From: Bacteroides cellulosilyticus
GTDB taxonomy: Bacteria > Bacteroidota > Bacteroidia > Bacteroidales > Bacteroidaceae
Assembly (NCBI RefSeq): GCF_020091405.1
Contig: NZ_CP081903.1
Span: forward strand, 3,162,501-3,226,500
Reading direction: 5' to 3'
DNA: 64,000 nucleotides
In this document: in pieces, positions 40,666 to 62,928 of the stretch
Position numbering within the stretch: position 1 is the stretch's first letter
How the letters are laid out: each line of letters starts with the position of its first letter
Program-made: the position numbers and the translations under genes
Notes under the pieces: generated by a model
The model's database searches: none
Told to the model about the DNA's origin: nothing
What the model saw: the letters and a program-made list of their open reading frames with translations, nothing else

Positions 40666-41553
40666 TTACTCTTGTTTTCGTGTCTTGTTCAGCGCTCCGA
40701 TAACATATTTCCCATTGTTATTTACCATACTCCACTTGGTGTTATGTATTATTTTCCAGACTCCATTTCCCAAACGTCCGTAATCTGACAGTTTCAATAT
40801 TGCTTTTACCTCGTCCGGGTCTTTGATATGCAGATTTTCCAGTGAGAGCAGCAGACATTCCAGATTATGGGTATTTTTGTTGTACGCGTATCCCGGAAAC
40901 TCAATAAAAGAATATCTCCTCCATACATCAACATCCTCCCCCGTCGGGGGAGTTAGAGGGGGAAGTCCTTTATTTTCATCTGCTTTGTTTTGTTCTGTTT
41001 TGCTTTGTTCGGAATTGTCAGCTATTTCGGGTAAACTGTCTGCATCCTGCACGCTATTTTTGGGATTTTGCATACCATCAGTTTCCCTGTCATACTTATC
41101 ATCTTTATTATCTTTATCATCTTTATCATTCTTGCCGTTCTTATCTCCTTTTTTATCTTCTTCGGGTTTTACCAGCATGTAGGGTAGGGACGCTAAGTCC
41201 CTCCTCCTACGTTTGGTGGCATCCAGCCACACTTTCTGTATATTGACTGAAGTCAGTATGCAGTGCTCTTCGTAACTTCCCTTGTCGAAGAATCCTTTTT
41301 CTATCAGGACATCCACGATTCCCTGCATTTCGTCTGCCGTAATCTCCTTTCCCGCCTTATTGCTGAATAGTACGCACTGCTCGTCATTCCAGTACAGATA
41401 ATATCCGTTCTCTTTGTAGATTTTGCATATCAGTTTCATTACTGCGGTTTCCGCTTTCATTCCATATTTTGCTTCAATCAGTTCCATCGATACCTCTTCG
41501 AACAGGTTTACCTGTGTCGGGAAATAAGGTATACTGTTATATATCATTGCCAT
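40666..41553 (-). CDS. DUF4373 domain protein (capsule-flanking)
   Basis: A 295-residue protein. The N-terminal 110 residues match the DUF4373/Lin1244-type domain (IPYFPTQVNLFEEVSMELIE, then KAGKEITADEMQGIV), a winged-helix-like replication-initiation fold. The middle is a low-complexity acidic and lysine-rich linker (DKKGDKNGKNDKDDKDNK), and the C-terminus is a small helical domain. Genes of this type sit next to the first genes of many Bacteroides capsule loci. Their role is unknown; DNA binding is suggested by the fold only. It is the last of three minus-strand genes, 42 nt after the previous one. Confidence 0.75.
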   Translation of the reverse strand: MAMIYNSIPYFPTQVNLFEEVSMELIEAKYGMKAETAVMKLICKIYKENGYYLYWNDEQCVLFSNKAGKEITADEMQGIVDVLIEKGFFDKGSYEEHCILTSVNIQKVWLDATKRRRRDLASLPYMLVKPEEDKKGDKNGKNDKDDKDNKDDKYDRETDGMQNPKNSVQDADSLPEIADNSEQSKTEQNKADENKGLPPLTPPTGEDVDVWRRYSFIEFPGYAYNKNTHNLECLLLSLENLHIKDPDEVKAILKLSDYGRLGNGVWKIIHNTKWSMVNNNGKYVIGALNKTRKQE

Positions 41554-41579: not shown

Positions 41580-41602
41580 TGTCAATTGTCAACTGTCAAT
41601 TG
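41580..41602. repeat. TGTCAATTG repeat, copy 1
   Basis: The run TGTCAATTGTCAACTGTCAATTG is built from TGTCAA(T/C)TG units. The same run recurs at 41984-42014, so the two copies flank the 115-residue gene. Copy 1 includes that gene's last codons and stop. Similar words occur at 43716-43756. Confidence 0.7.
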
Positions 41603-41943
41603 ATTGGTCTCCATTCCAGAAAATTCTCCAACTGGAAGCTTCTCCATGCCTGCAGGTCTACATCCCAATATATGATGTGCCCTTCTATACGTTTTATGTC
41701 GTATGTGCGATGGAAACTGCCTTCATAGGGTAGAAGAGTTGCCTTGACGAAGCGGAATGTTCCGTCCTGTTTGTAGTATGCTACGAGTGCATATCCGTAC
41801 TGCATGTAGTCGATGAGGCTTTCGATCCTGTCTGTCATCCATTGTGCCGCGTCTTCCGTATAAGCTTTTTCGAGCATAATACGTATTTTCCATCTCTTTT
41901 TGAGTGCTTCATTGAGTGAAGCGGTCTTTTTTCGCTTTTTCAT
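41596..41943 (-). CDS. SH3 beta-barrel-like hypothetical protein
   Basis: A 115-residue protein with a basic N-terminus (MKKRKKTASLNEALKKRW), one helix (AAQWMTDRIESLIDYMQ), then beta-rich sequence (YALVAYYKQDGTFRFVKATL and IIYWDVDLQAWRSF). Databases name similar capsule-flanking proteins SH3 beta-barrel fold proteins; this is from memory. It lies between the DUF4373 gene and the broken gene at 42167 on the same strand. Its function is unknown. The reading frame ends inside a TGTCAATTG repeat. Confidence 0.65.
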   Translation of the reverse strand: MKKRKKTASLNEALKKRWKIRIMLEKAYTEDAAQWMTDRIESLIDYMQYGYALVAYYKQDGTFRFVKATLLPYEGSFHRTYDIKRIEGHIIYWDVDLQAWRSFQLENFLEWRPIN

Positions 41944-42124: not shown

Positions 42125-42166
42125 TAGGTTGTTTCAATAGGGTGTAACTATTTAATTATTGTCTGT

Positions 42167-42576
42167 TTATTTCTTCTTTTTCTTCCCTTTTTTCTCTTCT
42201 TTTCTTTCCTGTTTCATCTTCTTTTCTCTCGCTTCCTGGGAGTATAATTCTCTGTTCAATTCCCCCAGTTTTAATTCTATGGTCTTGGATGACAGGTGAG
42301 TGCGGTCTTTTGTTAGGAAGAATTCTTTTTCCGCTGCCCAGTCTGCCACCGCTTTCATCGTTACGTCTTCTTTTTTACCGAAGCACCCCTTCTTTATGGC
42401 TGCGAGTAGCACCTCCATTCCCTCTTTTCTGCACTCGAAAGGCACCCCTTCCACTGTCGGACTTTGGGGACGTCCGGGTCCTCTGTCAGTCCCTTCTACA
42501 ATACCCTCTGAAGCCGTATTCTCTAGTTTTTCCAACTCTTTTTTTCAAGGCTTTCAGCCTTCTTTTGATTCTTCAT
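42167..42576 (-). CDS. Capsule-flanking hypothetical protein, frameshifted near its start
   Basis: The 122-codon frame has no ATG and would have to start at TTG 42535. An ATG at 42576 opens MKNQKKAESLEKK but runs into a stop after 17 codons. The two frames join perfectly if one A is added to the A7 tract in codons 11-13, giving continuous EKKELEKLEN. So the gene was about 136 codons and is broken, slips at the A-tract, or carries a sequencing error. The protein is charged, with KEDVTMKAVADWAAEKEFF and a very basic C-terminus (KKMKQERKEEKKGKKKKK). This family sits beside Bacteroides capsule loci; its role is unknown. Confidence 0.55.
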
Positions 42577-42640
42577 TTTTCTCTTTAATTTAAGTTATTA
42601 ATTAAATATATTATAATTGTATTAAATTATAAAAATGCGG

Positions 42641-42648
42641 CAAAGGTA
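42641..42648 (-). promoter_or_regulatory. Possible minus-strand promoter
   Basis: TACCTTTG on the minus strand fits TAnnTTTG and lies 65 nt upstream of the ATG at 42576. It would serve the three minus-strand genes independently of the invertible promoter. No good -33 element is seen. Confidence 0.4.
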
Positions 42649-42757
42649 GTGTAATCTTCCTTATGGTGAATGGAATGGGTGAAAAGAAAAAATAGAAAGG
42701 AATTTTTGTGTGTGTAAATTGTTTGTATACAGGTGTTTATATGCTTATTTTGTGGGT

Positions 42758-42980
42758 GTCCAAAAAACGTTCGTTTAATGAGCGCAAAGATAACGGGTAT
42801 TTTTTGAACCTGCAAGATGTTTAATAAAAATATTTTAGAACCAGGTCTTTTATATAGCTATATTATTGATAATCAGTCTAACATTTTTGTCGTTTAATAT
42901 ATTTAATATCTCTTCATTTTTATGTTTTCGAATAATCTGTTTTTTCTCATATTTTGACGTCCAAAAAACGAACGATTAAA
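42758..42980. other. Probable invertible capsule-promoter segment (OFF orientation)
   Basis: Left site AAACGTTCGT (42765-42774) and right site ACGAACGATT (42968-42977) are inverted copies with one mismatch. The shared core CGTTCGTTT/AAACGAACG (42768-42776 and 42966-42974) is perfect. The left site equals the ARACGTWCGT core remembered for Mpi-type capsule inversion in B. fragilis. The 193 bp between the sites match the segment size seen there. Outside the core, GTCCAAAAAACG also repeats directly (42758-42769, 42959-42970). The segment holds a strong promoter that now points left, away from upxY. This accounts for most of the gene-free stretch 42577-43177; the rest is a leader with a GGCAAG/CTTGCC hairpin (43057-43080). 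Confidence 0.6.
42785..42816 (-). promoter_or_regulatory. Promoter inside the invertible segment
   Basis: On the minus strand CTTG (42816-42813), a 20-nt spacer and TATCTTTG (42792-42785) match TTTG-N19-21-TAnnTTTG closely. In the present orientation it transcribes toward the minus-strand genes below 42577. After inversion it would read into upxY. Confidence 0.65.
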
Positions 42981-43177: not shown

Positions 43178-43714
43178 ATGGAAGCGGAGAAAGAAAGTGA
43201 AATATGGTATGCTATGCGTGCCACCTACCGTAGAGAGCCTGATGCCATGCGTCTTCTTGAAAAAGAGAAAATGGGCTGTTTCGTCCCTATGCAATACAAG
43301 ATAAGTCTGAAGAAAGGTAAGAAAGTCCGTGCCTTGGTTCCTGTTGTCCACAATCTGCTTTTTGTTCATGCCCGTCCTTCGGATGTGAAGCGTGTGAAGT
43401 CACAGGTCACTTACCTGCAATACATCACCGATACCCGTAGTGGTCAGAAGATTATTATCTCCAACAGTGAAATGCAACGCTTCATTGCCGTTGCCGGTAC
43501 CTACAATGACCATCTGCTGTACTTCCAACCTGATGAATTGAACCTGTCTAAAGGAACTAAAGTTCGTGTCACGGGTGGTGACTTTGAGGGCCAGGAAGGT
43601 ATTTTCCTGAAAGTAAAGGGTGCCCGCGACCGCCGTGTGGTTGTCGAGATACAAGGTGTCATCGCTGTTGCCATGGCTACTATCCATCCGGACCTGATTG
43701 AAGTAATTAAATAA
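43178..43714 (+). CDS. upxY: UpxY family capsule transcription antiterminator (NusG-like)
   Basis: A 178-residue NusG paralogue. The NGN-like domain (WYAMRATYRREPDAMRLLE onward) is followed by a KOW-type region (GTKVRVTGGDFEGQEGIFLK) near the C-terminus. UpxY proteins load on RNA polymerase at their own locus's leader and prevent premature termination through the capsule operon. ATG 43178 (MEAEKESE) is chosen over upstream codons because the family starts just before the WYAM block. It is the first gene of the locus, about 200 nt right of the invertible promoter, and upxZ follows after 75 nt. In the current OFF orientation little expression is expected. Confidence 0.92.
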   Translation: MEAEKESEIWYAMRATYRREPDAMRLLEKEKMGCFVPMQYKISLKKGKKVRALVPVVHNLLFVHARPSDVKRVKSQVTYLQYITDTRSGQKIIISNSEMQRFIAVAGTYNDHLLYFQPDELNLSKGTKVRVTGGDFEGQEGIFLKVKGARDRRVVVEIQGVIAVAMATIHPDLIEVIK

Positions 43715-43789: not shown

Positions 43790-44278
43790 ATGTCTCTTTC
43801 TGCAGAAACAGCTGCCCTTCAGCGTGCAGCACATGAGCTGATGTATTTGGGTGTTGACGGGAGTCCCATCTATAGCGATGATTTGTCCCGCCGCAACGGT
43901 GAAGTCTACCGCCTGACTACTGCCTTGTATAACTCCGGTGCCAAAGGTTCCACAGTTGAAGAACAGGCGGATGTTTGTCTTGCTCTCTTGATGGGGTATA
44001 GTGCCTCCTTCGTTGATCATGGTGAAAAACAGCAACATGTTCAGGAAGTGTTGGATCGTTGCTGGAATATCCTCGATACTCTTCCCGCTTCGTTATTAAA
44101 ACTTCGCTTGCTCACTGCTTGCTATGGTGAAGTGTTCGATGAGCCTTTAGCTGACGAGGGGCGTGCAATTATTGCTTCCTGGGATTCATCATCGCTCACT
44201 CACGAGCAGCAGGAAGCTATTACAGAATTTCAGAATGTGGTTGATAATCTTTATCCGTGGGAATACATTGACGAATAG
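43790..44278 (+). CDS. upxZ: UpxZ family transcription antitermination antagonist
   Basis: A 162-residue helical protein of the UpxZ family (MSLSAETAALQRAAHELMYLG, later GEVYRLTTALYNSGAKGS and LYPWEYIDE at the end). UpxZ proteins of one capsule locus inhibit the UpxY proteins of other loci, so that one capsule is made at a time. It follows upxY, the standard order in Bacteroides capsule loci. Confidence 0.92.
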   Translation: MSLSAETAALQRAAHELMYLGVDGSPIYSDDLSRRNGEVYRLTTALYNSGAKGSTVEEQADVCLALLMGYSASFVDHGEKQQHVQEVLDRCWNILDTLPASLLKLRLLTACYGEVFDEPLADEGRAIIASWDSSSLTHEQQEAITEFQNVVDNLYPWEYIDE

Positions 44279-46096: not shown

Positions 46097-46338
46097 TTAG
46101 CTTTTGTTCACTGCTACAGCCTCGGAGAACGCTTCTGTGAAAGGTTAGCGTCCAAAAATGATGTATATGAAAATCCATAAATTTGGTCGTACCGATTATG
46201 GTAATTTATTGCCGATAACCATCGGGATAATCAATAATAAACATTAAAAAATAATCCTTCTTTTGACAAATCTTATAAGGAAACCGCTTAAATGCGGCTT
46301 TCACTATGGGGCACGTCAAAATAGGATGCTACCTTTAT

Positions 46339-47868
46339 ATGTTGCAAAACAGTAAGCGTATAGCGAAAAATACCTTACTTCTTTATATTCGTACTTTTAT
46401 GATTATGGCTATTACTCTTTATACGAGCCGTGTAGTCTTAAATGTACTAGGAGTGGAGAATTATGGTATTTATAATGTGGTGGGTGGTGTTGTCGCTATG
46501 TTTTCTGTTATTTCAGGTTCGCTATCATCGGCTATTAGTAGATTTATAACTTTTGAGTTAGGGTGTGGTAATATTGAAAGGCTGAAAAGTGTATTCTCGA
46601 CAAGTATCAATATTCAAATTGCTATATCTTTGGTCGTTTTTATTGTTGGTGAGAGTGTGGGAACTTGGTTTCTCAATTATGAGATGAATATACCTTCTGA
46701 TCGTCTTGTGGCAGCTAACTGGGTATTGCATTGTTCTCTTCTTACGTTTGTTGTTAATTTGATTAGTATTCCCTACAATGCTTGCATTATAGCACATGAG
46801 CATATGAAAGCTTTTGCTTATGTCAGCATTCTGGAGGCTGTGTTAAAACTTGCAGTTGTGTATGCACTGTTGTCATCACCTTTTGATAAGCTGTCTACCT
46901 ATGCCGTATTACTTGTTATAGTGGCTGTTGTCATTCGAATTACTTACGGTATTTATTGTAAACGCCATTTCTATGAATGCAATTATAGATATGTTTATGA
47001 TAAATTAATCATAAGGGAAATGACAAGCTTCGCAGGTTGGAGCTTTTTTGGAAACTGTGCCTATATATTCAATACACAAGGAGTTAATATTTTAATTAAT
47101 TTATTCTTTGGAGTAACAGTTAATGCCGCACGTGGAATAGCTACACAATTAAATGCAGCTGTCATGCAATTTGTAAACAACTTTACTATAGCCATAAATC
47201 CTCAAATAACAAAATCTTATGCATCTGGTGATCGGAAATATATGTTTATGTTAGTTTGTCGCGGAGCTAAATATTCTTATTTTCTATTGTTTGTGTTCGT
47301 TGTGCCGTTTGTGTTGGAGACAGAGGCAATTCTTACTATGTGGTTAAAGGTTGTTCCTGAGTATACACCGGTCTTCATGAGACTGGCAATGTTTGGTTCA
47401 TTAGCAACATTATTAGGTAATTCCATGATGACTGCAGCGTCTGCTACAGGGAAGATAAAAAAATATCAATTATGGGTAACTATGGTTGGCTGTCTTGTAT
47501 TTCCATTGACATGGATGGCATTTAAATTAGGATATCCAGCTGTTATAACTTATGTAATTTATATTGCTATTTATATGCTACTTATATTTGTTCGTTTACA
47601 CATACTTAAGGGGTTACTTGATTTTCCCGTAATGCCATTTATCAGGCAGGTGATATGTAGGCTTGTATTTACCTCAATAGTAGCTTTTATAATTCCTTGT
47701 GGAATAATATATAGTATGAATTCTTCTATTTTACGTTTGTGTATTGTATTTGCTGTTAGCTTTTTATCTACTTGTGGGTCAATCAGCTTATTGGGTTTAG
47801 AACAAGATGAAAGGGCTTATTTTATTTCTAAATTCAAAAATATAATGTTGAAATTTAATAAAGTATAG
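46339..47868 (+). CDS. wzx: Wzx-type polysaccharide flippase
   Basis: A 509-residue MOP/MATE-superfamily membrane protein with about 12 to 14 hydrophobic helices. It is expected to flip undecaprenyl-linked repeat units across the inner membrane. The N-terminus NSKRIAKNTLLLYIRTF and the block LGVENYGIYNVVGGVVAMF are typical of Bacteroides O-antigen/capsule flippases. I start at ATG 46339 (MLQNSK) rather than 46306. It is the first biosynthetic gene of the capsule locus and stops 2 nt before the SDR gene. The region from here to about 61.6 kb is much richer in A/T and rare codons than the flanks, as usual for transferred glycan cassettes. With the Wzy-like protein at 56354 it points to Wzx/Wzy-dependent assembly. 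Confidence 0.9.
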   Translation: MLQNSKRIAKNTLLLYIRTFMIMAITLYTSRVVLNVLGVENYGIYNVVGGVVAMFSVISGSLSSAISRFITFELGCGNIERLKSVFSTSINIQIAISLVVFIVGESVGTWFLNYEMNIPSDRLVAANWVLHCSLLTFVVNLISIPYNACIIAHEHMKAFAYVSILEAVLKLAVVYALLSSPFDKLSTYAVLLVIVAVVIRITYGIYCKRHFYECNYRYVYDKLIIREMTSFAGWSFFGNCAYIFNTQGVNILINLFFGVTVNAARGIATQLNAAVMQFVNNFTIAINPQITKSYASGDRKYMFMLVCRGAKYSYFLLFVFVVPFVLETEAILTMWLKVVPEYTPVFMRLAMFGSLATLLGNSMMTAASATGKIKKYQLWVTMVGCLVFPLTWMAFKLGYPAVITYVIYIAIYMLLIFVRLHILKGLLDFPVMPFIRQVICRLVFTSIVAFIIPCGIIYSMNSSILRLCIVFAVSFLSTCGSISLLGLEQDERAYFISKFKNIMLKFNKV

Positions 47869-47870
47869 TC

Positions 47871-48743
47871 ATGTCTGTAAAAGAGTGTTTGAAAAGGGCT
47901 GTAATTTATATTGTAAAAGGTGTACCAGTCAAAAAAGTCACAACATCTATCGTTCAAATTGCTCCCAATGAACTATTGAAGGGCCGAGTTGCATTATTAA
48001 CAGGAGGTACGAGTGGAATTGGTTTTGCGATAGCTAATGCTTTTCTAAAAAGTGGTGCAAGCGTTGTGATTACAGGGAGGAATGAAAACCGAATTCAGGA
48101 TAGTTGTAATAAACTATTACAGAATAAGGATTTTCAGAATAGAATATTTGGTGTTGTAATGGATAATACAGATGTAGCTGGTTTTGAAACATGCTTTCAA
48201 AAAATATTGTCTCTTTTGGATGGACGAAATGTTGATATTTTAATTAATAATGCAGGCATACGGGGAGGGCACATTGCTACTGTTACTGAGGCTGACTATG
48301 ATATGATACTTGATACAAACTTGAAAGCAGTATTCTTTCTTTCACGACTTGTCGGAAAATATATGAAAGAAAATAAAATTACTGGTAATATTTTGAATAT
48401 AATTTCTTCATCGGGTCTTCGCCCTGCGGCCTCTGCCTATACGTTGTCTAAATGGGGTGTGAGAGGATTAACTCTTGGATTGGCAAAATCTCTTATTCCT
48501 TATGATATAGTAGTAAATGGATTGGCTCCGGGGCCTACGGCAACTCCAATGCTCATGAAAGATGGTAGTGAAGAAATCGGACACACAAGTAATCCTTTAG
48601 GAAGATATGCAATGCCGGAGGAAATAGCAAATATGGCCGTTGTACTGACTAGTGGCATGGGAAGAACTGTAGTTGGTGACATTGTTTATATGACAGGAGG
48701 AGCTGGAATAATAACGTTTGATGATATGGATTATAAATTTTAA
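47871..48743 (+). CDS. SDR family oxidoreductase (capsule)
   Basis: A 290-residue short-chain dehydrogenase. An extra N-terminal 37 residues (MSVKECLKRAVIYIVKGVPV) precede the Rossmann motif TGGTSGIG (44-51). The NNAG motif and the catalytic Y190-x-x-x-K194 (AYTLSKW) are present. The final part, GLAPGPTATPM and YMTGGAG, is classical SDR. It begins 2 nt after wzx and ends 14 nt before the MenD-like gene. The pairing suggests that the SDR reduces a ketone or aldehyde made by the ThDP enzyme. The product is not known. Confidence 0.88.
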   Translation: MSVKECLKRAVIYIVKGVPVKKVTTSIVQIAPNELLKGRVALLTGGTSGIGFAIANAFLKSGASVVITGRNENRIQDSCNKLLQNKDFQNRIFGVVMDNTDVAGFETCFQKILSLLDGRNVDILINNAGIRGGHIATVTEADYDMILDTNLKAVFFLSRLVGKYMKENKITGNILNIISSSGLRPAASAYTLSKWGVRGLTLGLAKSLIPYDIVVNGLAPGPTATPMLMKDGSEEIGHTSNPLGRYAMPEEIANMAVVLTSGMGRTVVGDIVYMTGGAGIITFDDMDYKF

Positions 48744-48757
48744 TTTGCAATATAAAT

Positions 48758-50515
48758 ATGGGTAACTTTTATACGGATGAACGCAATGTTCAAATAGTAT
48801 TATTTTTATTGAAAGCTAATGGTATTAAAAAGGTAGTTGCCTCTCCCGGTGCAACCAATATTACAGTTGTTGCTAGTATGCAGAATGATTCTTTTTTTGA
48901 GATGTATTCTGCGGCTGATGAACGTTCAGCAGCTTATATTGCTTGTGGACTGGCGGCAGAATCTGGGGAACCGGTTGTTTTATCATGTACTGGTGCTACT
49001 GCCTCTCGAAATTATATGCCTGGATTGACGGAGGCATTCTACAGAAAATTGCCTTTAATAGCAATAACTTCCTCTAAAAGTTCATCCATGATAGCTCAAT
49101 TGGTAGCACAGGTAACGGATAGAACATCTCCCCCTAGTGATGTTGTAAAGCGTAGTGTCTTGGCTGGTATTGTAAAAGACGAAGATGATGAATGGGATTG
49201 TATGATTAAGATAAATCAAGCTTTGAGCACTCTGAAGCAGAATGGAGGAGGCCCTATTCATATAAATTTGGAAACGACTCATAGTGATGACTTTTCTGTC
49301 AAGGAGCTTCCGAAGGCTCGCATTATTAAATGCATTACAGTATATGATCAATTTCCTGAGATACCTAGTGGCAGAATAGGACTGTTTATAGGTTCTCACA
49401 ATCGCTGGACGGATGAGGAAAGCGAGCGGCTTGATAGATTCTGTGCTTCCAATAATGCTGTGGCTTTATGTGATCATACGAGTAATTATAAGGGTAAATA
49501 TAGAGTACTTTTTTCTTTACCACTATCTCAAGATAATTATATCCCTAAATTATCTCAGTTTGATTTGCTTATTCATATAGGTGAAATTTCTGGCGAATAT
49601 TCTGGCTTAAATTGCTTATATGTGAAAGAGGTTTGGCGCGTGAACGAAGATGGAGAAATTCGTGATACTTTTCATCAATTAACCCATGTCTTTGATATGT
49701 CGGAATCTAGCTTTTTTGAACATTATATAAAGTGGGATACGCCTATGTCAGATAGTTTTCTGACAAGTTATAAGGAAGAATATGGGCGGATGCTAAATAA
49801 AATGCCTGAAATACCTTTTTCGAATATTTGGGTAGCCAAGCAGCTGGCTCCTCGATTGCCTGAGAATTCAGTGTTACATTTGGGAATTTTGAATACATTA
49901 CGATCATGGAATTTTTTTGAAATACCAGATTCTGTACTTTCATACTCCAATGTCGGTGGCTTTGGCATTGATGGTTGCCTTTCTACTTTGGTAGGTGCAT
50001 CTTTGGTCCATAAAGATAAACTCTATTTTGGATTATTTGGTGATTTGGCTTTTTTCTATGACATGAATGTAGTAGGTAACCGTCATGTGGGGGCTAATTT
50101 ACGAATACTTCTTATCAATAATGGAAAGGGAGTTGAATTTAGAAATTACAATCATCAAGCTGCGCAGTTTGAGGAAGCGGCAGATGCATTTATTGCTGCA
50201 GCTGGTCATTATGGTAATCAGTCTCCAGAGCTTATAAAACATTATGCTCAAGATTTAGGATATGAATACTTGTGTGCATCAACAAAGGAGGAATTTGAAC
50301 AAGTTGTTTCTCGTTACTTAACTTCGGAAATTACTGATAAACCTATCTTGTTTGAGGTCTTTACGAATACAGAAGAGGAAAAAAAAGCTTTGAAAATAGT
50401 CAGGAGCATTGAAAGTGATGGCTCTATGGTCATAAAGAAAGCGTTAAAAAATGCGGTTAAGCAAACATTGGGAGAGAAAGCCATTGAGCAGGTGAGAAAA
50501 ACTTTTAAAAATTGA
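48758..50515 (+). CDS. MenD-like thiamine diphosphate enzyme (capsule)
   Basis: A 585-residue ThDP-dependent decarboxylase/carboligase. The N-terminal PYR domain has SPGATNI and the cofactor-activating glutamate E55 in DERSAAY. The central domain is degenerate. The C-terminal PP domain has the ThDP/Mg motif with D429 in GDLAFFYDMN and the N454/N455 pair in LLINNGKG. Similarity is strongest to MenD (SEPHCHC synthase), but no other menaquinone gene is near, and the position within the capsule operon argues for a new role. It could make an acyloin or branched sugar precursor. A C-terminal extension of about 35 basic residues (KKALKNAVKQTLGEKAIEQ) is unusual. Confidence 0.75.
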   Translation: MGNFYTDERNVQIVLFLLKANGIKKVVASPGATNITVVASMQNDSFFEMYSAADERSAAYIACGLAAESGEPVVLSCTGATASRNYMPGLTEAFYRKLPLIAITSSKSSSMIAQLVAQVTDRTSPPSDVVKRSVLAGIVKDEDDEWDCMIKINQALSTLKQNGGGPIHINLETTHSDDFSVKELPKARIIKCITVYDQFPEIPSGRIGLFIGSHNRWTDEESERLDRFCASNNAVALCDHTSNYKGKYRVLFSLPLSQDNYIPKLSQFDLLIHIGEISGEYSGLNCLYVKEVWRVNEDGEIRDTFHQLTHVFDMSESSFFEHYIKWDTPMSDSFLTSYKEEYGRMLNKMPEIPFSNIWVAKQLAPRLPENSVLHLGILNTLRSWNFFEIPDSVLSYSNVGGFGIDGCLSTLVGASLVHKDKLYFGLFGDLAFFYDMNVVGNRHVGANLRILLINNGKGVEFRNYNHQAAQFEEAADAFIAAAGHYGNQSPELIKHYAQDLGYEYLCASTKEEFEQVVSRYLTSEITDKPILFEVFTNTEEEKKALKIVRSIESDGSMVIKKALKNAVKQTLGEKAIEQVRKTFKN

Positions 50516-50548
50516 CAATAATTTGAAGTTTTACTGATATTTTTTTTG

Positions 50549-51538
50549 ATGATGGAGAAAAGAATTTATAACCTTGATAATGTTAAAGTTATTTTGATGT
50601 TGTTGGTGATTATAGGACATACATTATTGAATTCTTATGGTGATGATAGTATAGAATATATTCGTTTTATTTGTAGATGTTTCACTATGCCTCTTTTTAC
50701 TTTTATATCAGGTTATTTGACGAAAAAAGAACAAGCGTTTTGGAAGAATGTAAAATATCTACTGTATCCGTGTCTTTTGTTTACTGTGGTGAATGATATA
50801 CTTCAGATACTGGTTACTCCAAATTATGTATTTTCTTGGAAACAACCAGGTTTTGCAATGTGGTATTTATTGGCATTGTTTATATATCGTGTACTTTTAC
50901 CTTATTTATTGAGAATTAAGTATGTGCTATTACTTAGCTTCTTACTGTCTTGGCTGGTTGGCTTTATTCCATTTATTGGTAATGACTACTCTCTTTCTAG
51001 AATATTCTGTTTTTTGCCATATTTTCTTTTAGGGTATTTTGTCGCCCATGAAAATAGATTTAGTATTATTAAAGATGCAATATTTACAAAGTTAAATTGG
51101 AGAGGGTATTTGGTATTTATAGTACTTTTTCTGTTTTGGGCCTTTGTTATAGAAAGATATCCTGGTGTTACTTATGCTACAGGATTTACAAATGGATTTG
51201 GTTTGAGTATAAAAGGTTTATTTGTGCGTATTGCTTTACAGGTAACGATTGTGATAACAGGTTTCTGTGTAATGAAAATATGCCCTAATAAGGAGACTTT
51301 TTATACAAAATATGGGAGTAATACTATGAATGTTTATCTTCTGCATGCACTTGTCGTTCTTCCTTTCATTTATTTAGTATTTCCCTCATTTGGAGAAGCA
51401 ACATGGTTTGAAAAAATTGCACTAATAATAGTTCCTACAATTTGTTGTTTGCCTTTATTCAGCAATATAATCAATCAGTTGATGAAAATTATCTTATGTC
51501 AAGGTAAAGTTCATAGAGAGAAGATAGCGGATTTATGA
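50549..51538 (+). CDS. Acyltransferase 3 family membrane O-acyltransferase
   Basis: A 329-residue polytopic membrane protein of the acyltransferase 3 (OafA/fucose 4-O-acetylase-like) family. The hallmark N-terminal region YNLDNVKVILMLLVIIGHT provides the conserved histidine, and RCFTMPLFTFISGYL is the second motif. About ten helices follow. It should transfer an acetyl or other acyl group to the capsule repeat unit. The true start is ATG 50549; the codon at 50546 is TTG. It lies between the MenD-like gene and the pyruvyltransferase. Confidence 0.85.
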   Translation: MMEKRIYNLDNVKVILMLLVIIGHTLLNSYGDDSIEYIRFICRCFTMPLFTFISGYLTKKEQAFWKNVKYLLYPCLLFTVVNDILQILVTPNYVFSWKQPGFAMWYLLALFIYRVLLPYLLRIKYVLLLSFLLSWLVGFIPFIGNDYSLSRIFCFLPYFLLGYFVAHENRFSIIKDAIFTKLNWRGYLVFIVLFLFWAFVIERYPGVTYATGFTNGFGLSIKGLFVRIALQVTIVITGFCVMKICPNKETFYTKYGSNTMNVYLLHALVVLPFIYLVFPSFGEATWFEKIALIIVPTICCLPLFSNIINQLMKIILCQGKVHREKIADL

Positions 51539-51616
51539 AAAGTGATATAAAGGTAAGATAAAAATAAACAAAGAGGATGTAAGATTTAAGTTTTAATAAA
51601 AAAAGATTAGGGTTAT

Positions 51617-52765
51617 ATGAAAATAGTGTTGTCTGGAATAGAAACAAACAATAAAGGAGCTGAATTAATGCTATATGCTATTCTGCAAGAGATAGAACGT
51701 AAGTATCCTGACGCATGGGTATATGTACCTATATATGCGATCGGACAGGGATTAAGTTATATTCATACAAATCTGAAGCTACGGAACAAACCTTTTGCGA
51801 AAATAAAGAAAGCTGCGAGGAAACTTCATATTCCGGGAATTTTGCGAAGACTTCATTTGCCTTATTATTTTATTGATGATTCCAGTGCGGTTAATGATGC
51901 TGACTATTTTATTGATGCAAGTGGTTTTGCCTTTTCTGATCAGTGGAAACCGACAGATTATATTGTGAAAGTTTGGGAGAAGCAACTTATGGGATACCAC
52001 AAACAAGGAACTAAAATTATCTTTTTACCTCAAGCTTTTGGTCCGGCCAATTTACCTAACACAAAAAAGGAATTAGCTCTTTTAAATCAGTATGCTGATA
52101 TAATTATGCCTCGTGAGGAAGTGTCTTTGGGATATTTACAACAATGTAATGTGAATATGAAAAAAGTTCGTTTATTTTTAGACTTTACTTCTATAGTGTA
52201 TGGGCAATGCCCGAAGAGGTATGATCATCTAAAAAATGGTGTTTGCATAATTCCTAATCTTCGTATGATTGATAAAGGAGTAATATCTCTGGAAAATTAT
52301 CTTGAGATATTAAATAAGGTGATTGATAAAGCTATTTCTGACGGACATAAAGTTTATTTGCTGAATCATGAAGGTAGGGAAGATGAAGAATTGGCTTATA
52401 TGTGTAGGGATAAACTGTGTAACCGTATAGAAGTTGTGACTGGTTTGAATGCATTAGAGGTAAAGGGACTTATTGCTACGTCTATATTATGCATAACTTC
52501 CCGATTCCATGGAGCTGCATCTGCTTTGAATTCCTGTGTGCCATGTTTAGCGACAAGCTGGAGTCATAAGTATGCAGAACTTTTTAAAGGTTATGGAATG
52601 ACTGATTGTATTCTTGATGTAACAAATTTAGTTTCATGTATTGATAAAGTTAGTGAATTTCTATCTACTAACAAAAGTCAGGAAATACGTGAACATCTGC
52701 GACTGCAACTTCCCGAAATTCAGTCACAAACACAAGATATGTGGAAATGTGTTTGGAGCATATAA
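51617..52765 (+). CDS. Polysaccharide pyruvyltransferase family protein
   Basis: A 382-residue protein. The N-terminal MKIVLSGIETNNKGAELML and the later block ITSRFHGAASALNSCVPCL with SWSHKYAEL are typical of the CsaB/WcaK family. These enzymes transfer pyruvate from phosphoenolpyruvate to a sugar as a ketal. LPQAFGP (about 137-143) is another conserved element. It suggests a pyruvylated, acidic capsule. It sits alone with small gaps (78 nt before, 26 nt after). Confidence 0.87.
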   Translation: MKIVLSGIETNNKGAELMLYAILQEIERKYPDAWVYVPIYAIGQGLSYIHTNLKLRNKPFAKIKKAARKLHIPGILRRLHLPYYFIDDSSAVNDADYFIDASGFAFSDQWKPTDYIVKVWEKQLMGYHKQGTKIIFLPQAFGPANLPNTKKELALLNQYADIIMPREEVSLGYLQQCNVNMKKVRLFLDFTSIVYGQCPKRYDHLKNGVCIIPNLRMIDKGVISLENYLEILNKVIDKAISDGHKVYLLNHEGREDEELAYMCRDKLCNRIEVVTGLNALEVKGLIATSILCITSRFHGAASALNSCVPCLATSWSHKYAELFKGYGMTDCILDVTNLVSCIDKVSEFLSTNKSQEIREHLRLQLPEIQSQTQDMWKCVWSI

Positions 52766-52791
52766 ATTAATCCAATAATAAAAATGTTTTT

Positions 52792-54123
52792 ATGAATATT
52801 GCAATTGTAGGTACAGGCTATGTAGGATTAGTATCGGGTACATGTTTCGCAGAAATGGGAGCGGATGTCACTTGTATAGATATTGATGAAGGAAAGATAT
52901 TGAAACTTCAGTCAAGCGAGATTCCTATATATGAACCAGGGCTAGATAGTATGGTGAAGCGTAATGTAGAAGCGGGGCGTTTAAAATTTGCTACTGATTT
53001 AACTTCATGTATAGATAATGTAGAAATAGTTTTTAGTGCTGTAGGTACTCCACCTGACGAAGATGGTAGTGCTGATTTGAAGTATGTGCTTGATGTAGCC
53101 CGTACCTTTGGACAGAATATAAAAAAGTATACGGTATTAGTTACTAAAAGCACTGTGCCGGTAGGTACAGCAATGAAAATAAAAGCTGTAATCAAAGAGG
53201 AATTGCGGAGAAGAAATTTATATATTGAATTTGATGTAGCTTCTAATCCTGAATTTTTGAAAGAGGGTGCTGCTCTGAAAGATTTTATGAGTCCAGATCG
53301 TGTAGTCATCGGAGTGGAGACTGAGCGTGCTAAAGAGATAATGAATAAACTTTATAAGCCTTTCGTCCTTAATAATTACCGTATTCTTTTTATGGATATT
53401 CCTTCTGCGGAGATGACTAAATATGCTGCTAACTCTATGCTTGCTACTCGAATTAGTTTTATGAATGATATCGCTAATCTTTGTGAACTTGTCGGAGCCG
53501 ATGTGGATATGGTTCGTCGGGGAATTGGCGCGGATGCACGTATTGGGACAAAATTTCTTTATCCGGGTTGTGGATATGGAGGAAGTTGTTTTCCGAAAGA
53601 TGTGAAAGCGTTGATTCATACAGGGAAAGAGTATGGTTATGACATGAAAGTGATTGAAGCGGTGGAAGAAGTGAATGAGTATCAGAAGAATGTTGTGTTT
53701 GAGAAACTCTTCAAGATTTTTGATGGTAATTTGAAAGGTAAAACAATTGCCTTATGGGGGTTGTCTTTCAAACCGGAAACGGATGATATGCGTGAAGCAC
53801 CGGCTTTGGTTATCATAGATAAGTTGATAAAAGCAGGTGCAAAGGTGAATGTTTATGATCCGGCGGCAATGGATGAATGTAAGCGGAGAATTGGTGATGT
53901 TGTCGTATACTGTGAGGATATGTATGAGGCGGTGATTGATGCGGATGCTCTTGCAATGATTACGGAGTGGAAGCTGTTTAGAATCCCTAGCTGGAAAGTT
54001 GTGAAAAAGGCCATGAGAGGAAATGTAGTAGTTGATGGACGTAATATTTATGAAAAAACTGATTTAATGATGGAAGGTTTGAGATATACTCGGATTGGAT
54101 ACAATGAATGGGAATATGAATGA
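52792..54123 (+). CDS. ugd: UDP-glucose 6-dehydrogenase
   Basis: A 443-residue enzyme that oxidises UDP-glucose to UDP-glucuronate using NAD. The N-terminal Rossmann motif IAIVGTGYVGL and the catalytic cysteine C266 in YGGSCFPKDVKAL are clear, as are GTPPDEDGSADL, SNPEFLKEG and KPETDDMREAP. The length is normal. It supplies a uronic acid donor, consistent with an acidic capsule. The following glycosyltransferase overlaps its end by 8 nt. Base composition is less AT-rich in its last third than in the neighbours. Confidence 0.95.
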   Translation: MNIAIVGTGYVGLVSGTCFAEMGADVTCIDIDEGKILKLQSSEIPIYEPGLDSMVKRNVEAGRLKFATDLTSCIDNVEIVFSAVGTPPDEDGSADLKYVLDVARTFGQNIKKYTVLVTKSTVPVGTAMKIKAVIKEELRRRNLYIEFDVASNPEFLKEGAALKDFMSPDRVVIGVETERAKEIMNKLYKPFVLNNYRILFMDIPSAEMTKYAANSMLATRISFMNDIANLCELVGADVDMVRRGIGADARIGTKFLYPGCGYGGSCFPKDVKALIHTGKEYGYDMKVIEAVEEVNEYQKNVVFEKLFKIFDGNLKGKTIALWGLSFKPETDDMREAPALVIIDKLIKAGAKVNVYDPAAMDECKRRIGDVVVYCEDMYEAVIDADALAMITEWKLFRIPSWKVVKKAMRGNVVVDGRNIYEKTDLMMEGLRYTRIGYNEWEYE

Positions 54124-55141
54124 AAATATTGTTTTGCCTCTTGTTACAGTAATTATACCGACATATAATTCTGAGAAATATGTTATAAAAACGCTAGAAT
54201 CTGTAAGAAATCAGCATTATTTGAATTGGGAAGCTGTGATAGTTGATGATGGTTCAGAGGATTTGACTGTTCAGATTATAGAAGAATATATTCAAAATGA
54301 CTCCCGCTTTCATTTTTATCGAAGAAATGTAGAAAAAAAAGGAGGAAATGTATGTCGAAATTTAGGTATTGAATATGCAAAAGGCACTTTTTTACTCTTT
54401 TTGGATGCAGATGATTTACTTGCTCCCTATTGTTTGGAGCAAAGAGTAAAAAAGATAAGTAATACCTCCTTAGATTTGGGGGTGTTTAATATGTATTCTT
54501 TTTTGGGGGATAAAAAAAAAGCAAAACTATATTCTAATTTAAATGTAGATAATGTTTTGTTTCATTACTTTGCTTTAGATTGGGTTTGGCAAACCAGTGC
54601 TCCTTTATGGAGAAAAGATTTTATTGTGAAAATAGGAGGCTTTAATGTGAATTATTCGCGTCTTCAAGATCCAGAATTGCATTTAAGAGCTTTCCTAAAT
54701 GTCCCCAATTATAAACTATTTCCAGATTCTATTCCAGATGCATATTATAGGCAGGATTTTTATTTGGATAAAGATATTATTCGTAAAAAACAAATAAATT
54801 GTTATTGGAGCATAAAGCAATTCTTACATGATTATATTTTTTCACTACAAGAATATAAAACGTTAAATCCATATATTTATCACAAAACAATGAATGCTTT
54901 GATGACAAAGAGCATGATTCATTATTGGAATACTAATGTTGAAGATTATGATGCTTTTGTAAAATATTTCAAAGACGTAAGAGAGAATTGTGATTTTTTT
55001 TTAAAGCTTTTATCTAGTGATTTTTTTTCTAGGATATTTAAATTAATTATAAGGGTTGAGTTAGGAAGAGAAGTTATCCTGTGGTTACTTTCTAAAATTA
55101 ATATCTATTATAATAACAAAATTAGTGATAAACCACTTTGA
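54116..55141 (+). CDS. Glycosyltransferase family 2 (first)
   Basis: A 341-residue GT2 enzyme. VTVIIPTYNS and VDDGSEDLT form the nucleotide-sugar binding part, and LFLDADDLL is the DxD metal-binding motif. The C-terminal region is rich in aromatics and basic residues, and no membrane segment is clear. It adds one sugar to the lipid-linked repeat unit on the cytoplasmic side. The start is ATG 54116 (MNENIV), 8 nt inside ugd; ATG 54104 is also in frame. It is followed by a 172-nt gap with no recognisable gene. Confidence 0.9.
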   Translation: MNENIVLPLVTVIIPTYNSEKYVIKTLESVRNQHYLNWEAVIVDDGSEDLTVQIIEEYIQNDSRFHFYRRNVEKKGGNVCRNLGIEYAKGTFLLFLDADDLLAPYCLEQRVKKISNTSLDLGVFNMYSFLGDKKKAKLYSNLNVDNVLFHYFALDWVWQTSAPLWRKDFIVKIGGFNVNYSRLQDPELHLRAFLNVPNYKLFPDSIPDAYYRQDFYLDKDIIRKKQINCYWSIKQFLHDYIFSLQEYKTLNPYIYHKTMNALMTKSMIHYWNTNVEDYDAFVKYFKDVRENCDFFLKLLSSDFFSRIFKLIIRVELGREVILWLLSKINIYYNNKISDKPL

Positions 55142-55313
55142 TATCTTCCCCTTTGAATCTTAATGAAAAGAATATTTTTTTAGATGATAGATATGGACTA
55201 CAACTATAAAAATGAGTAGCTATACAATGATTGCTTACAGTTTCAAGGAATTGGCGGATGCTTAAAAAAAATCACCTAAAGAGGTTAATGTAGTTTTTTA
55301 TTTATAGACTAAT

Positions 55314-56339
55314 ATGTATAAGGTCTCTATTTCTTTCCCGGTATATAATGTGTGTGACAGAGTGGAAAAGTCTTTGTTGTCAGCTCTAAATCAAACTTAC
55401 TCTAATCTTGAGTTTTTGATCATTGATGATAAAGGAACTGACGATAGTATGTCTATTATTTATGAAGTTGTTTCTAAACATGAAAGAAAGAATCAAATTC
55501 GCTTTATATCTCATAAACAAAATTTAGGATTAGGAAGTGTGAGAAATACTAGTATTGATTATGCAACAGGAGAATTCCTTTATTTCATGGATAGTGATGA
55601 TGAAATCTCTTTTGATTGTATTTCTCTACTTATGAGATATATGGAGTCGTATAGAGTTGATTTTATTGCATCTTCGGCATCTGTTATATTAAGCGATGGA
55701 AAAAGGGAGAAAATTGGATATAGTAGCATAATGCATTGGAAGAGTAATGATTCAATTCTGGAGAACGTCTTTATTATGCATAATTCGGTTCCAGTTTATA
55801 TGTGGAATAAACTTTTTTCATTAGAATTTTTGCGTGGTAATAATTTACGTTGTATTCATTCTTATGTTGAAGATGATTTTTTTACATTTAGGTGTCTATG
55901 TTCAGCTAGCTCTTGTTTATGTGTGCCAGATCAGACGTATAATTATATGATAAATGGAAACTCTATTACTAATAACTTAATGAAGAAAAATATTCCTCTA
56001 AAAACAGCTCTTATATATGAAGATATTTTCTTGAGAAAATTAGAACTTATTCAGAAAATAGCTAATCGTAAAATAAGAAACTTCATGCTGTATGAAACTG
56101 TTAATATAGCCTTGATAAGGATTGGTATGATTGATATTTCAGATAAGATAGATTATATGCAAAAGAAAAATGTGATTGAGAATATGATGCGTTGGCCGAC
56201 TTTGAATTTATCTTATTTCTTACGACAAAATAAAAGAGTTGTTTTTAAGGTTTGTTTTATGGATCTCATGTGTTTATTTCCTCTTAGTGTCAGAAAGGCT
56301 TTAATTATAAAAACAAATAATTATCGAATAAGTAAATAA
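55314..56339 (+). CDS. Glycosyltransferase family 2 (second)
   Basis: A 341-residue GT2 enzyme with VSISFPVYNV, IIDDKGTDDS and the metal motif YFMDSDDEI. The C-terminal half (YMWNKLFSLEFLRGNN, VEDDFFTF) contains the ED catalytic-base region common in this subfamily. No membrane anchor is seen. It ends 14 nt before the polymerase gene. Donor and acceptor are not predictable. Confidence 0.9.
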   Translation: MYKVSISFPVYNVCDRVEKSLLSALNQTYSNLEFLIIDDKGTDDSMSIIYEVVSKHERKNQIRFISHKQNLGLGSVRNTSIDYATGEFLYFMDSDDEISFDCISLLMRYMESYRVDFIASSASVILSDGKREKIGYSSIMHWKSNDSILENVFIMHNSVPVYMWNKLFSLEFLRGNNLRCIHSYVEDDFFTFRCLCSASSCLCVPDQTYNYMINGNSITNNLMKKNIPLKTALIYEDIFLRKLELIQKIANRKIRNFMLYETVNIALIRIGMIDISDKIDYMQKKNVIENMMRWPTLNLSYFLRQNKRVVFKVCFMDLMCLFPLSVRKALIIKTNNYRISK

Positions 56340-56353
56340 TAACCATTGATATT

Positions 56354-57565
56354 TTGAAAACATTCTTTTTGGTATGCCTCTTATATATATTCTTTTTTAA
56401 TCCTAATGTTGCTTCTCTTGGAAGCCTGTTGGTGAGATTGGTTTATCCAATTTTGATAGTTAATGCATTTTGTAGACATTCTGCTTATTTGAAATTGTTG
56501 AAGAATACCATAGTGGAAAATTCATTGGTTGTTCTGCTTTTGGCTTATTCTATTCTGTTGTCTCTTTTTGCAAAAGGGAATATCGATATGCTAAAGGGGT
56601 GTATCAACCTGTCTTTAGGGGTGTTTTTAACTCCATCACTAATTTTAATATTAGGGTATAGTGGTCGCAATAGTAATAAAATCTTTCGGTTAGTTATCAT
56701 TAGTGGATTTGTGGCTGTTGCTATAAGTTGTATCTGCTTTATTTTTCCAGAAATCAATGATATTATAAGAAATATACAATTTAAAGAAGATAACAAAATT
56801 AGTGAAATATCATATAGAGGCTTTGGCTTTTCTAATGGATTGTTTTTTTATTTTCCAATTATATTATCAGTTATTACTATTTTTTCAATTTCAAGAATTG
56901 AGAACAAGGCTATTGTTTTTCTCTTTTTCTTCTTGTTTAACTTTGTCGTCTTGATAAATGCGAGAATAGGATTTCTTCCTTTAATGATATGGGTAATATA
57001 TAAAATGCTCCATAAAGTGAAGCTTTTCTTTTATATAGTAATAATTTTAATTCTCTTTATATGGGGAGTTTCGTGGTTGGCTTCATATTATGATGATAGT
57101 TTATTAGGGTTTGTCTTTAAATGGTTATTGGCTGGAATAGGTCAAATAACTAATCCATTATTGGGGACAAATTTTGATACATTAGGTGAAAATCATTTTG
57201 AAACATTGGGGGGTACAATGGTGGTTTATCCTGCTGATTACATTCACTGGCTTATGGGGTCAGGAATAAATTTGTTTGGGCGAGTTGTAGGTAATAATTC
57301 AGATGTAGGTTATGTGATACAATTATATTATGGTGGGATTATATTTCTTATGTTATTAATAGGACTTATAGTATTTATGTTCGTGAGGCTATTGAAAAGA
57401 GGAACACTGACTAAAAATTATCGCTGTTTTCCATATTTATTCATGGGGATAGTTTTGATAGCAAATGTGAAAGGCGATTTTCTAGTTCAGATAAATAATG
57501 GTTTCCTTTTTCTTTTCTTTTGCTATTGTGTGATTTTATATGAAAAAAAATATGTACTTGTTTGA
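56354..57565 (+). CDS. wzy: Wzy-like O-antigen/capsule polymerase
   Basis: A 403-residue membrane protein with about ten hydrophobic helices and a large external loop (about 255-325, NPLLGTNFDTLGENHFETL, then YPADYIHWLMGSG). This is the layout of Wzy polymerases, which join repeat units in the periplasm. Sequence identity is not usable for naming; topology and context give the call. The start is TTG 56354, since no earlier ATG is in frame. Its end overlaps the next glycosyltransferase start by 26 nt. Confidence 0.8.
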   Translation: MKTFFLVCLLYIFFFNPNVASLGSLLVRLVYPILIVNAFCRHSAYLKLLKNTIVENSLVVLLLAYSILLSLFAKGNIDMLKGCINLSLGVFLTPSLILILGYSGRNSNKIFRLVIISGFVAVAISCICFIFPEINDIIRNIQFKEDNKISEISYRGFGFSNGLFFYFPIILSVITIFSISRIENKAIVFLFFFLFNFVVLINARIGFLPLMIWVIYKMLHKVKLFFYIVIILILFIWGVSWLASYYDDSLLGFVFKWLLAGIGQITNPLLGTNFDTLGENHFETLGGTMVVYPADYIHWLMGSGINLFGRVVGNNSDVGYVIQLYYGGIIFLMLLIGLIVFMFVRLLKRGTLTKNYRCFPYLFMGIVLIANVKGDFLVQINNGFLFLFFCYCVILYEKKYVLV

Positions 57566-58265
57566 TAATCGGAAAATTGTAACAATAATAACCGTAGTAT
57601 ATAATGACATACGGATAGAGGAGACAATCAAGTCTGTAATTCCTTTCTTGACAAATGCAGTGGAATATATCATAATAGATGGTGGCAGTAAGGATGGTAC
57701 AGAATTACTTTTAAAAAAATATGAATCTTATTTAGCTTATAGTGTTAGTGAAAAAGATTTTGGTATCTATGATGCGATGAATAAAGGCGTTAGTAAGGCT
57801 AATGGGCATTATATATTGCATTTGAATAGTGGAGATATTCTATTAGCATTGCCTTTGGAACGATTGATAAATGCTGCATATAATCAAGTCGATATATTAT
57901 CTTTTCCCGTTTCCATAAATGCCGGTGAGATGATATACAAGCCTCTTTTTGATTGGCGAGTGAAGTTTAGGACATCATTACATCATCAAGGTACATTTTA
58001 TAGGAAAGAACTTGTTTCATATAATACTTCATATAAAATATTTTCGGATTTTAACTTGAATCAGAATCTGTATATAGAGCATAGGAAAGTCATTTGTTGT
58101 GTAAATCCTATTGTTGCTATTCATATGGAAGATGGAATTTCTGCTAAATCGAAAGGGCGAAGGAAAGAATGCTTAAGGGTAATTAAAAATAATTTTGGGA
58201 TTACTTATTGTGTGGCTTTTTATATTTATATGATAATGAAGGTAATATTGAAACGTAGATATTAA
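57540..58265 (+). CDS. Glycosyltransferase family 2 (third, WcaE-like)
   Basis: A 241-residue GT2 enzyme of the shorter type. VTIITVVYNDI, IIIDGGSKDGT, SEKDFGIYDAMNKGV and LNSGDI are the family marks (the DxD is replaced by NSGD). This group includes WcaE-like colanic acid transferases. A hydrophobic C-terminus (TYCVAFYIYMIMKVIL) may anchor it to the membrane. It overlaps wzy by 26 nt and abuts the HAD gene with no gap. Confidence 0.88.
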   Translation: MKKNMYLFDNRKIVTIITVVYNDIRIEETIKSVIPFLTNAVEYIIIDGGSKDGTELLLKKYESYLAYSVSEKDFGIYDAMNKGVSKANGHYILHLNSGDILLALPLERLINAAYNQVDILSFPVSINAGEMIYKPLFDWRVKFRTSLHHQGTFYRKELVSYNTSYKIFSDFNLNQNLYIEHRKVICCVNPIVAIHMEDGISAKSKGRRKECLRVIKNNFGITYCVAFYIYMIMKVILKRRY

Positions 58266-61444: not shown

Positions 61445-61457
61445 AATTGAAAAAGAT

Positions 61458-62923: not shown

Positions 62924-62928
62924 GAAAT

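What the first reader, a model, noticed from the sequence alone, without database searches (positions are those of the whole stretch)
42758..42980. Invertible capsule promoter captured in the OFF orientation
A strong promoter (CTTG-N20-TATCTTTG) points away from upxY and lies between inverted sites AAACGTTCGT and ACGAACGATT, 193 bp apart. The site core and segment size fit the Mpi-controlled capsule promoters of B. fragilis as I remember them. In the present state the promoter would instead drive the three minus-strand genes below 42577, so the switch may alternate two gene sets rather than just on and off.
Basis: partly seen in the sequence, partly recalled or inferred. Interest (0 to 1): 0.75.

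Follow-up and report, generated by a model that had tools for sequence, protein, structure and literature searches.

The report
Invertible capsule promoter, caught OFF
A short stretch of DNA in this gut Bacteroides carries a promoter that an enzyme can probably flip to turn one sugar capsule on or off, a switch already known from related gut bacteria, and it sits beside a little-studied set of neighbouring genes that deserves its own look.

Summary
At 42758-42980 a Bacteroides promoter (minus strand) lies between two inverted CGTTCG cores and faces away from upxY/upxZ and a capsule operon. It belongs to a set: 9 of 11 UpxY loci over the cut-off in this genome have the paired sites, 8 OFF and 1 ON. 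Of 69 site-pair loci in 18 genomes, 61 could be scored: 49 OFF, 12 ON. One locus is oppositely oriented in two genomes with about 96% identical flanks, so the class inverts. The likely enzyme is a 196-aa serine recombinase at 4.68 Mb; its orthologues sit where B. fragilis Mpi/FinA is described and track the sites across 158 genomes. The same switch is published for B. intestinalis and B. fragilis: a new member of a known kind. The 'two gene sets' idea is only weakly supported: the minus-strand genes are a recurrent cassette (28 of 69 loci), but 17 of those 28 have an exact promoter box of their own about 120 bp outside the segment. The cassette's first gene is split at a conserved poly-A tract in the 28 loci examined, which may be new.

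The parts
42765..42780 (+). left inversion site, AAACG-TT-CGTTTAATG (core CGTTCG 42768-42773)
   Evidence: read; paired sites at 9 of 11 UpxY loci over the cut-off in this genome
42963..42977 (-). right inversion site, AAAAAACG-AA-CGATT (core CGAACG 42969-42974); inner arm departs by two bases from the commoner ATTAAACG
42774..42968 (.). invertible segment, 195 bp between the two 6-bp cores
   Evidence: gap 195, the commonest value there; homologous segments occur inverted relative to their flanks in other genomes
42785..42816 (-). Bacteroides-type promoter CTTG-N20-TATCTTTG, facing away from upxY (OFF)
43178..43714 (+). upxY, antiterminator; first gene of the capsule operon (ATG at 43178; the mechanical ORF begins at TTG 43109)
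   Evidence: NF033644 E 4.9e-49
43790..44278 (+). upxZ, antagonist of UpxY-type antiterminators
   Evidence: PF06603 E 4.8e-46
46306..63663 (+). capsule biosynthesis genes: weak MatE flippase match (below cut-off), acyltransferase, pyruvyl transferase, UDP-sugar dehydrogenase, glycosyltransferases, epimerase, WecG-type transferase
   Evidence: Pfam
42641..42648 (-). TACCTTTG, candidate own promoter box of the divergent cassette, outside the invertible segment
   Evidence: box 112-128 bp from the left site in 17 of 28 cassette loci and 0 of 32 testable loci without cassette genes
42167..42576 (-). gene A: ATG at 42576 opens a 17-codon ORF that stops at 42525-42523; the long ORF to 42167 is in another frame; an A7 run at 42545-42539 (minus strand) lies in the overlap
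41596..41943 (-). WYL_2 (Sm-like SH3 beta-barrel) protein, second cassette gene
   Evidence: PF10902 E 3.6e-23
40666..41553 (-). Lin1244_N protein, phage-replication-initiator-like, third cassette gene
   Evidence: PF14297 E 4.2e-25; phrog_2562

Best explanation
A phase-variable capsule promoter of the Mpi type. A serine invertase encoded elsewhere in the genome (probably the 196-aa protein at 4.68 Mb) recombines the two inverted CGTTCG sites and flips the 195-bp segment. In one orientation its TTG-N20-TAnnTTTG promoter reads into upxY, upxZ and the capsule operon; in the other, as here, it faces away and the capsule is off. The neighbouring minus-strand genes are a recurrent companion cassette that probably has a fixed promoter of its own, so the main output of the flip is capsule ON/OFF. 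Shown here: sites, promoter, orientation, genome-wide set, opposite orientations of one homologous locus, and the recombinase-site association. Inferred: that this recombinase acts on this site, that the window's own segment flips, and the transcriptional outcome.
For: Paired sites and promoter in place; 9 of 11 UpxY loci over the cut-off in this genome carry them, 8 OFF and 1 ON. Site pairs in 28 of 158 genus genomes. Of 69 loci, 61 scorable: 49 OFF, 12 ON, 8 unscored. L196 (OFF) and the own 5.75-Mb locus (ON) share 96.7% over 598 bp to the left and 96.2% over 900 bp to the right, while the 182-bp segment matches at 95.6% only as reverse complement. An orthologue of P0008 at 63% identity or more occurs in 27 genomes and site pairs in 28: 26 both, 2 sites only (G089, G102), 1 recombinase only (G051), 129 neither; Fisher 2.4e-26. 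In L220 the orthologue lies next to a tyrosine recombinase followed by Bac_transf, Poly_export and Wzz/GNVR genes, the order PMC3090145 gives for finA BF2779, Tsr19 BF2780, BF2782-2784 (passages).
Against: Species are not independent, and the 63% threshold was chosen after seeing the list, so the Fisher value overstates the case. No close orthologue of the window's own locus in the ON state was found. The right inner arm of this locus departs from the commoner sequence (AAAAAACG for ATTAAACG), which could slow inversion. The exact pair ACGTTCGT...ACGAACGT found in B. fragilis-like genomes is absent here (0 hits in G000). No read data were available.
Confidence: 0.9

Rival explanations
1. Two-output switch: in the OFF orientation the promoter transcribes the divergent cassette (gene A, WYL_2, Lin1244_N), so the flip swaps capsule genes for a second, perhaps regulatory, set.
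For: A WYL_2 gene pointing away from the left site stands at 28 of 69 loci, 633-825 bp from it. In this genome 5 of 6 WYL_2 genes sit beside such switches. No terminator-like site on the minus strand in 40500-44500. [quoted passage not shown] that this is PF10902 is my inference from the Pfam description.
Against: 17 of 28 cassette loci have an exact TAnnTTTG box of their own 112-128 bp outside the segment, and six more a near-match there; 0 of 32 testable loci without cassette genes have it, though 7 of those 32 have such a box elsewhere within 260 bp. 41 of 69 loci showed no such cassette; some of these have short flanks or could not be oriented.
Confidence: 0.25
2. Another invertase (one of the five other PF00239 proteins, or a tyrosine recombinase) flips the segment.
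For: Six PF00239 proteins in the genome. PMC8375218 names at least two Mpi homologues in B. intestinalis (passage).
Against: Two of the others (L119, L120) lie among phage-like genes by my reading of the ORFs, not by a domain search; matches at about 55% identity or less also occur in genomes without site pairs, for example G002, G037, G136. No tyrosine recombinase was seen among the window proteins searched.
Confidence: 0.08
3. A relic: the segment is fixed in this orientation because the right site has decayed.
For: The right inner arm differs by two bases from the commoner form; no ON orthologue of this locus was seen.
Against: The CG-nn-CG core of both sites is intact, the 195-bp length is kept, and other loci carry a similar AAAAAACGAACG right arm (L067, L085, L086).
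Confidence: 0.05

Closest known systems
B. intestinalis APC919/174 phase-variable CPS loci PVR7-9, 11, 12 (PMC8375218 and PMC12118408, passages seen)
   Same: Promoter segment of similar length upstream of CPS operons, inverted repeat GTTCGTTTAA, most loci OFF in the wild-type culture, transcription start inside the proximal repeat, at least two Mpi homologues named
   Different: The right repeat here reads GTTCGTTTTT instead of GTTCGTTTAA; inversion was measured there and not here
B. fragilis Mpi/FinA-controlled PS promoters (Coyne 2003 not held; seen through passages of PMC3090145, PMC8375218, PMC12632263)
   Same: ARACGTTCGTN repeats, one global invertase, UpxY/UpxZ, 7 of 8 loci invertible; ACGTTCGT pairs in G017 (5 pairs against 1 control), which by size (5,205,140 bp, recalled) is B. 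fragilis NCTC 9343
   Different: Invertase 77% identical; site arms differ outside the core. PMC12118408 (passage) says instead that B. fragilis repeats share a GTTAC motif and that the B. intestinalis type differs more
B. xylanisolvens and Parabacteroides distasonis CPS promoters with GTTAC/GCTAC-type repeats (PMC12118408, passages)
   Same: Invertible promoter before UpxY- or NusG-type capsule operons
   Different: Other repeat sequences, longer segments (280-345 bp), an invertase or integrase next to the locus

Membership tests
Mpi-controlled invertible capsule promoter | inverted sites with ARACGTWCGT-type core flanking a promoter | tested here: met
   left site exact, right site one mismatch; the consensus was recalled, then seen as ARACGTTCGTN
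Mpi-controlled invertible capsule promoter | Bacteroides promoter inside the segment that would read into upxY when flipped | tested here: met
Mpi-controlled invertible capsule promoter | capsule operon headed by upxY and upxZ downstream | tested here: met
Mpi-controlled invertible capsule promoter | several loci in the same genome share the site | tested here: met
   9 of 11 UpxY loci over the cut-off
Mpi-controlled invertible capsule promoter | Mpi orthologue in the genome | tested here: met
   P0008, Resolvase domain plus weak HTH matches; the neighbourhood of its orthologue matches finA/BF2779 in L220-L222 by ORF order, domains tested in L220 only
Mpi-controlled invertible capsule promoter | both orientations occur | tested here: inconclusive
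   met for the class and for one homologous locus; not seen for the window's own locus
Mpi-controlled invertible capsule promoter | inversion depends on Mpi | not testable with these tools
   needs a deletion mutant
tyrosine-recombinase promoter switch | GTTAC-type repeats and an adjacent tyrosine recombinase | tested here: not met
   sites are CGTTCG type; no integrase domain among the window proteins searched
two-output (alternating) invertible promoter | opposite-side genes depend on the invertible promoter | tested here: inconclusive
   own promoter-like box at 17 of 28 cassette loci; no RNA data

The most novel reading that the evidence does not exclude
The switch has two faces. When the capsule is OFF, its promoter boosts a conserved divergent cassette found beside many Mpi-type capsule switches in Bacteroides. 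The first cassette protein is made only after slippage at a conserved poly-A tract, so a recoded small protein, perhaps nucleic-acid-binding, would be tied to the OFF state and might feed back on capsule expression or inversion.
Probability: 0.2. Interest if true: 0.75.

Novelty: new member of a known kind. Interest (0 to 1): 0.42.

Why it matters
The switch extends a published capsule phase-variation system, relevant to phage resistance and colonisation, to a further genome with nine such loci, and gives a computable link between one serine invertase and its sites across the genus. The less expected result is next door: a gene cassette recurring beside these switches whose first gene is frame-broken at a poly-A tract in all 28 loci examined, with purifying selection on the part that has no in-frame ATG. 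I found no paper describing it in the searches I ran; if confirmed it would be a recoded gene family tied to capsule switching, testable with RNA-seq.

Tried and rejected
The bare 10-mer ARACGTWCGT as evidence: rejected, not enriched. The loose pair ACGTTCG-N(180-210)-CGAACG: 12 hits against 8 for the control; 7 lie beside UpxY genes, the other five (L053, L055-L058) do not and I treated them as chance. A first orientation scan read '-' loci in the wrong direction and was redone. In one search the query named upxY_44 was in fact an UpxZ; one search corrected this and orientation was scored there. The promoter scan uses an E. coli-type consensus and was not relied on for promoters. Named records (15 loci): 12 show a site pair with a promoter, two facing the upx-side arm (L063, L077) and ten away, judged from the outer arms, not from upxY; L064, L066 and L075 gave no pair. 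A mobile-element origin of the cassette was considered: the sixth WYL_2 gene of this genome, in L226, lies among what look like phage genes (not domain-tested) with no cassette match beside it; origin left open. Slipped-strand phase variation as the reason for the gene A frame break: less likely, since 0 of 28 loci are in frame (about one third expected), but relatedness reduces these to 14 groups at 60% identity. Alternative starts: ATG, GTG or TTG in the long frame lie mostly past the conserved stretch; the window's TTG at 42535 and the ATG of L195 are earlier. Structure prediction was not used. Literature: one search listed two papers that name DUF4373 (which I recall as an older name of Lin1244_N) with Bacteroides; I saw only the listing. 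Searches gave no paper holding the cassette terms; one search listed one Blochmannia paper (not opened); I saw passages of PMC3711429 only; one search gave the single inverton paper whose passage is. PMC8748976 passages were seen and not used.

Full report
What is there. The 6-bp cores CGTTCG (42768-42773) and CGAACG (42969-42974) are 195 bp apart. The two sites also match as direct repeats, 18 of 21 bases, because each is a near-palindrome around CG-nn-CG whose central two bases are TT on the left and AA on the right. That is the form expected of a serine-invertase crossover site (general knowledge of the Hin/Gin family). To the right lie upxY (NF033644) and upxZ (PF06603) and then capsule genes. 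The promoter faces away from them.

Is it more than chance? The core motif alone is not (52 against 67 for the reversed control). The spaced pair is: the symmetrical pattern CGTTCGTTT-N(174-204)-AAACGAACG gives 7 pairs in this 6.94-Mb genome against 0 for the control, and occurs in 28 of 158 genus genomes (105 pairs by my sum) against 12 control hits in 12 genomes.

A family of switches. UpxY searching gives 14 matches in this genome, 11 over the cut-off. Nine of the 11 have the site pair about 200 bp apart directly upstream; in eight the promoter points away from upxY, in one (5.75 Mb) towards it. Of the other two, the 3.58-Mb locus has a promoter facing upxY but only one site in the 1.5 kb examined, and the 6.66-Mb locus has no site near its promoter.

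Relatives and orientation. I fetched 60 of the 98 non-own pairs (17 genomes) and scored them with the nine own loci. Of 69 loci, 61 could be scored: 49 OFF and 12 ON. Among scored loci, wherever two segments matched by blastn, strand agreed with the promoter call in 904 of 904 pairs (651 same call and same strand, 253 different call and opposite strand); this is partly circular, because the promoter is part of the match. The strongest case is not circular: L196 (another genome, OFF) and the own 5.75-Mb locus (ON) are 96.7% identical over 598 bp on the left and 96.2% over 900 bp on the right, while the segment between matches at 95.6% over 182 bp only in reverse complement. L161 (ON) against L196 is similar but weaker on the left (98.5% over 590 bp right, 83.9% over 211 bp left, segment 92.9% over 183 bp inverted). 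L198 and L200, two loci of one draft genome, are also opposite, but both contigs end 46 bp past the site. For the window's own locus the best segment match (L163, 80% over 183 bp) is also OFF; no close ON orthologue was found.

The enzyme. The genome holds six PF00239 proteins. One, at 4.68 Mb (P0008, 196 aa), has a Resolvase domain and weak C-terminal HTH matches, and lies between genes that include DUF308 and redoxin proteins. Its orthologue in G017, G018 and G023 lies next to a tyrosine recombinase followed by Bac_transf, Poly_export and Wzz/GNVR proteins (ORF order for all three; domains tested in G017 only). PMC3090145 (passages) gives that order for finA BF2779, Tsr19 BF2780 and BF2782-2784. 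G017 has a contig of 5,205,140 bp, which I recall as the size of B. fragilis NCTC 9343. Orthologues at 63% identity or more occur in 27 genomes and site pairs in 28; 26 genomes have both, 2 sites only (G102 has a 56% match; G089 is not among the listed matches), 1 recombinase only, 129 neither (Fisher 2.4e-26). Species are related and the threshold was set after looking, so I read this as strong but not independent evidence.

What is already known. PMC8375218 (passages) describes CPS loci of B. intestinalis with 183-186-bp invertible promoters flanked by GTTCGTTTAA, partly overlapping the Mpi repeat of B. fragilis, with measured inversion, RNA-seq starts inside the proximal repeat and at least two Mpi homologues. 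PMC12118408 (passages) repeats this and contrasts it with GTTAC-type systems, placing B. fragilis with the latter. Against that, one search finds 5 to 7 ACGTTCGT pairs in each of G017, G018 and G023 (controls 1, 1, 0), and none of that exact form in the window's genome. PMC12632263 (passages) summarises B. fragilis: seven of eight loci invert by one global invertase. The window's switch is a further member.

The two-gene-set idea. The minus-strand genes are not random neighbours. A WYL_2 (PF10902) gene points away from the left site at 28 of 69 loci, 633-825 bp from it, and in 27 of the 28 a further gene matches the third gene of one of the own cassettes; in four of the five own cassettes that third gene is Lin1244_N. 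In this genome five of six WYL_2 genes sit there. But on the outward strand an exact TAnnTTTG box stands 112-128 bp from the left site at 17 of 28 cassette loci, 1 of 2 loci with only gene A or third-gene matches, and 0 of 32 loci without cassette genes; 7 of those 32 have such a box elsewhere within 260 bp, 2 loci were too short to test and 5 of the 69 could not be oriented. In the window it is TACCTTTG at 42648-42641. Only some have a convincing -33 element, and the window's does not. So the cassette probably has a fixed promoter, and the OFF-facing promoter could at most add to it. No terminator-like site lies on that strand in between. Cassettes occur with ON (2), OFF (23) and unscored (3) promoters. 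[quoted passage not shown] if that is PF10902, the two-output view has been touched on in print.

Gene A. At the 28 cassette loci the first ATG whose ORF overlaps the long ORF is out of frame with it (17 by -1, 11 by +1; for L180 the choice is poor, because its long frame is interrupted), and the overlap holds an A tract of 6-8 (23 of 28 have 7 or more, 3.1 expected in shuffles). In most, no in-frame ATG precedes the conserved RGRPKG-like stretch. In 9 sequence pairs of 75-99% identity the part upstream of the first in-frame ATG shows 89 synonymous and 45 non-synonymous single-change codons against 28 and 106 expected, with changes at codon positions 1/2/3 of 57/49/127 (L180 left out). The 27 long-frame pieces form 14 groups at 60% identity. 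I read this as programmed slippage or frameshifting, a known kind of event at poly-A tracts (PMC3711429, passages), in a family for which I found no report. Mechanism and function are untested.

Verdict. An ordinary but clear Mpi-type invertible capsule promoter in the OFF orientation, with an unusual neighbour.

Noticed in passing
window 42576-42167 (minus strand) and the other 27 cassette loci (among L162-L219 and own loci): Gene A of the divergent cassette is split by a reading-frame change at a conserved A6-A8 tract in 28 of 28 loci, with purifying selection on the part before any in-frame ATG: a candidate programmed-slippage gene family beside capsule switches.
   Followed up: partly
window 42641-42648 and loci: Where exact, the cassette's own -7 box stands at a nearly constant distance (118-122 bp in 17 loci; L176 at 131) from the inversion site although the sequence between varies; why the spacing is kept is unexplained.
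   Followed up: partly
L037/L108 (own genome, 3.58 Mb): A UpxY capsule locus with a promoter facing upxY and only one inversion site in the 1.5 kb examined: possibly a locked-ON locus.
   Followed up: no
L051/L052 (own genome, 0.30 and 0.63 Mb): Two capsule loci whose switch segments begin identically and whose upstream cassettes are nearly identical, suggesting a recent duplication or transfer of the switch.
   Followed up: no
L120 3091-3624 (+) and 4057-4788 (-): Beside a Gin-like serine recombinase in a phage-like region, two ORFs in opposite directions share the same first 60 residues: looks like an invertible phage gene pair.
   Followed up: no
window 39069-39395 and 39534-40160: An HTH_3 gene followed by a HipA_C gene, resembling a HipBA-type pair, upstream of the cassette.
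   Followed up: no
L198 and L200 (one draft genome, G036): Two similar capsule loci with the same segment in opposite orientation, both on contigs that end 46 bp beyond the site: assemblies seem to break at these repeats, so counts from drafts may be biased.
   Followed up: no
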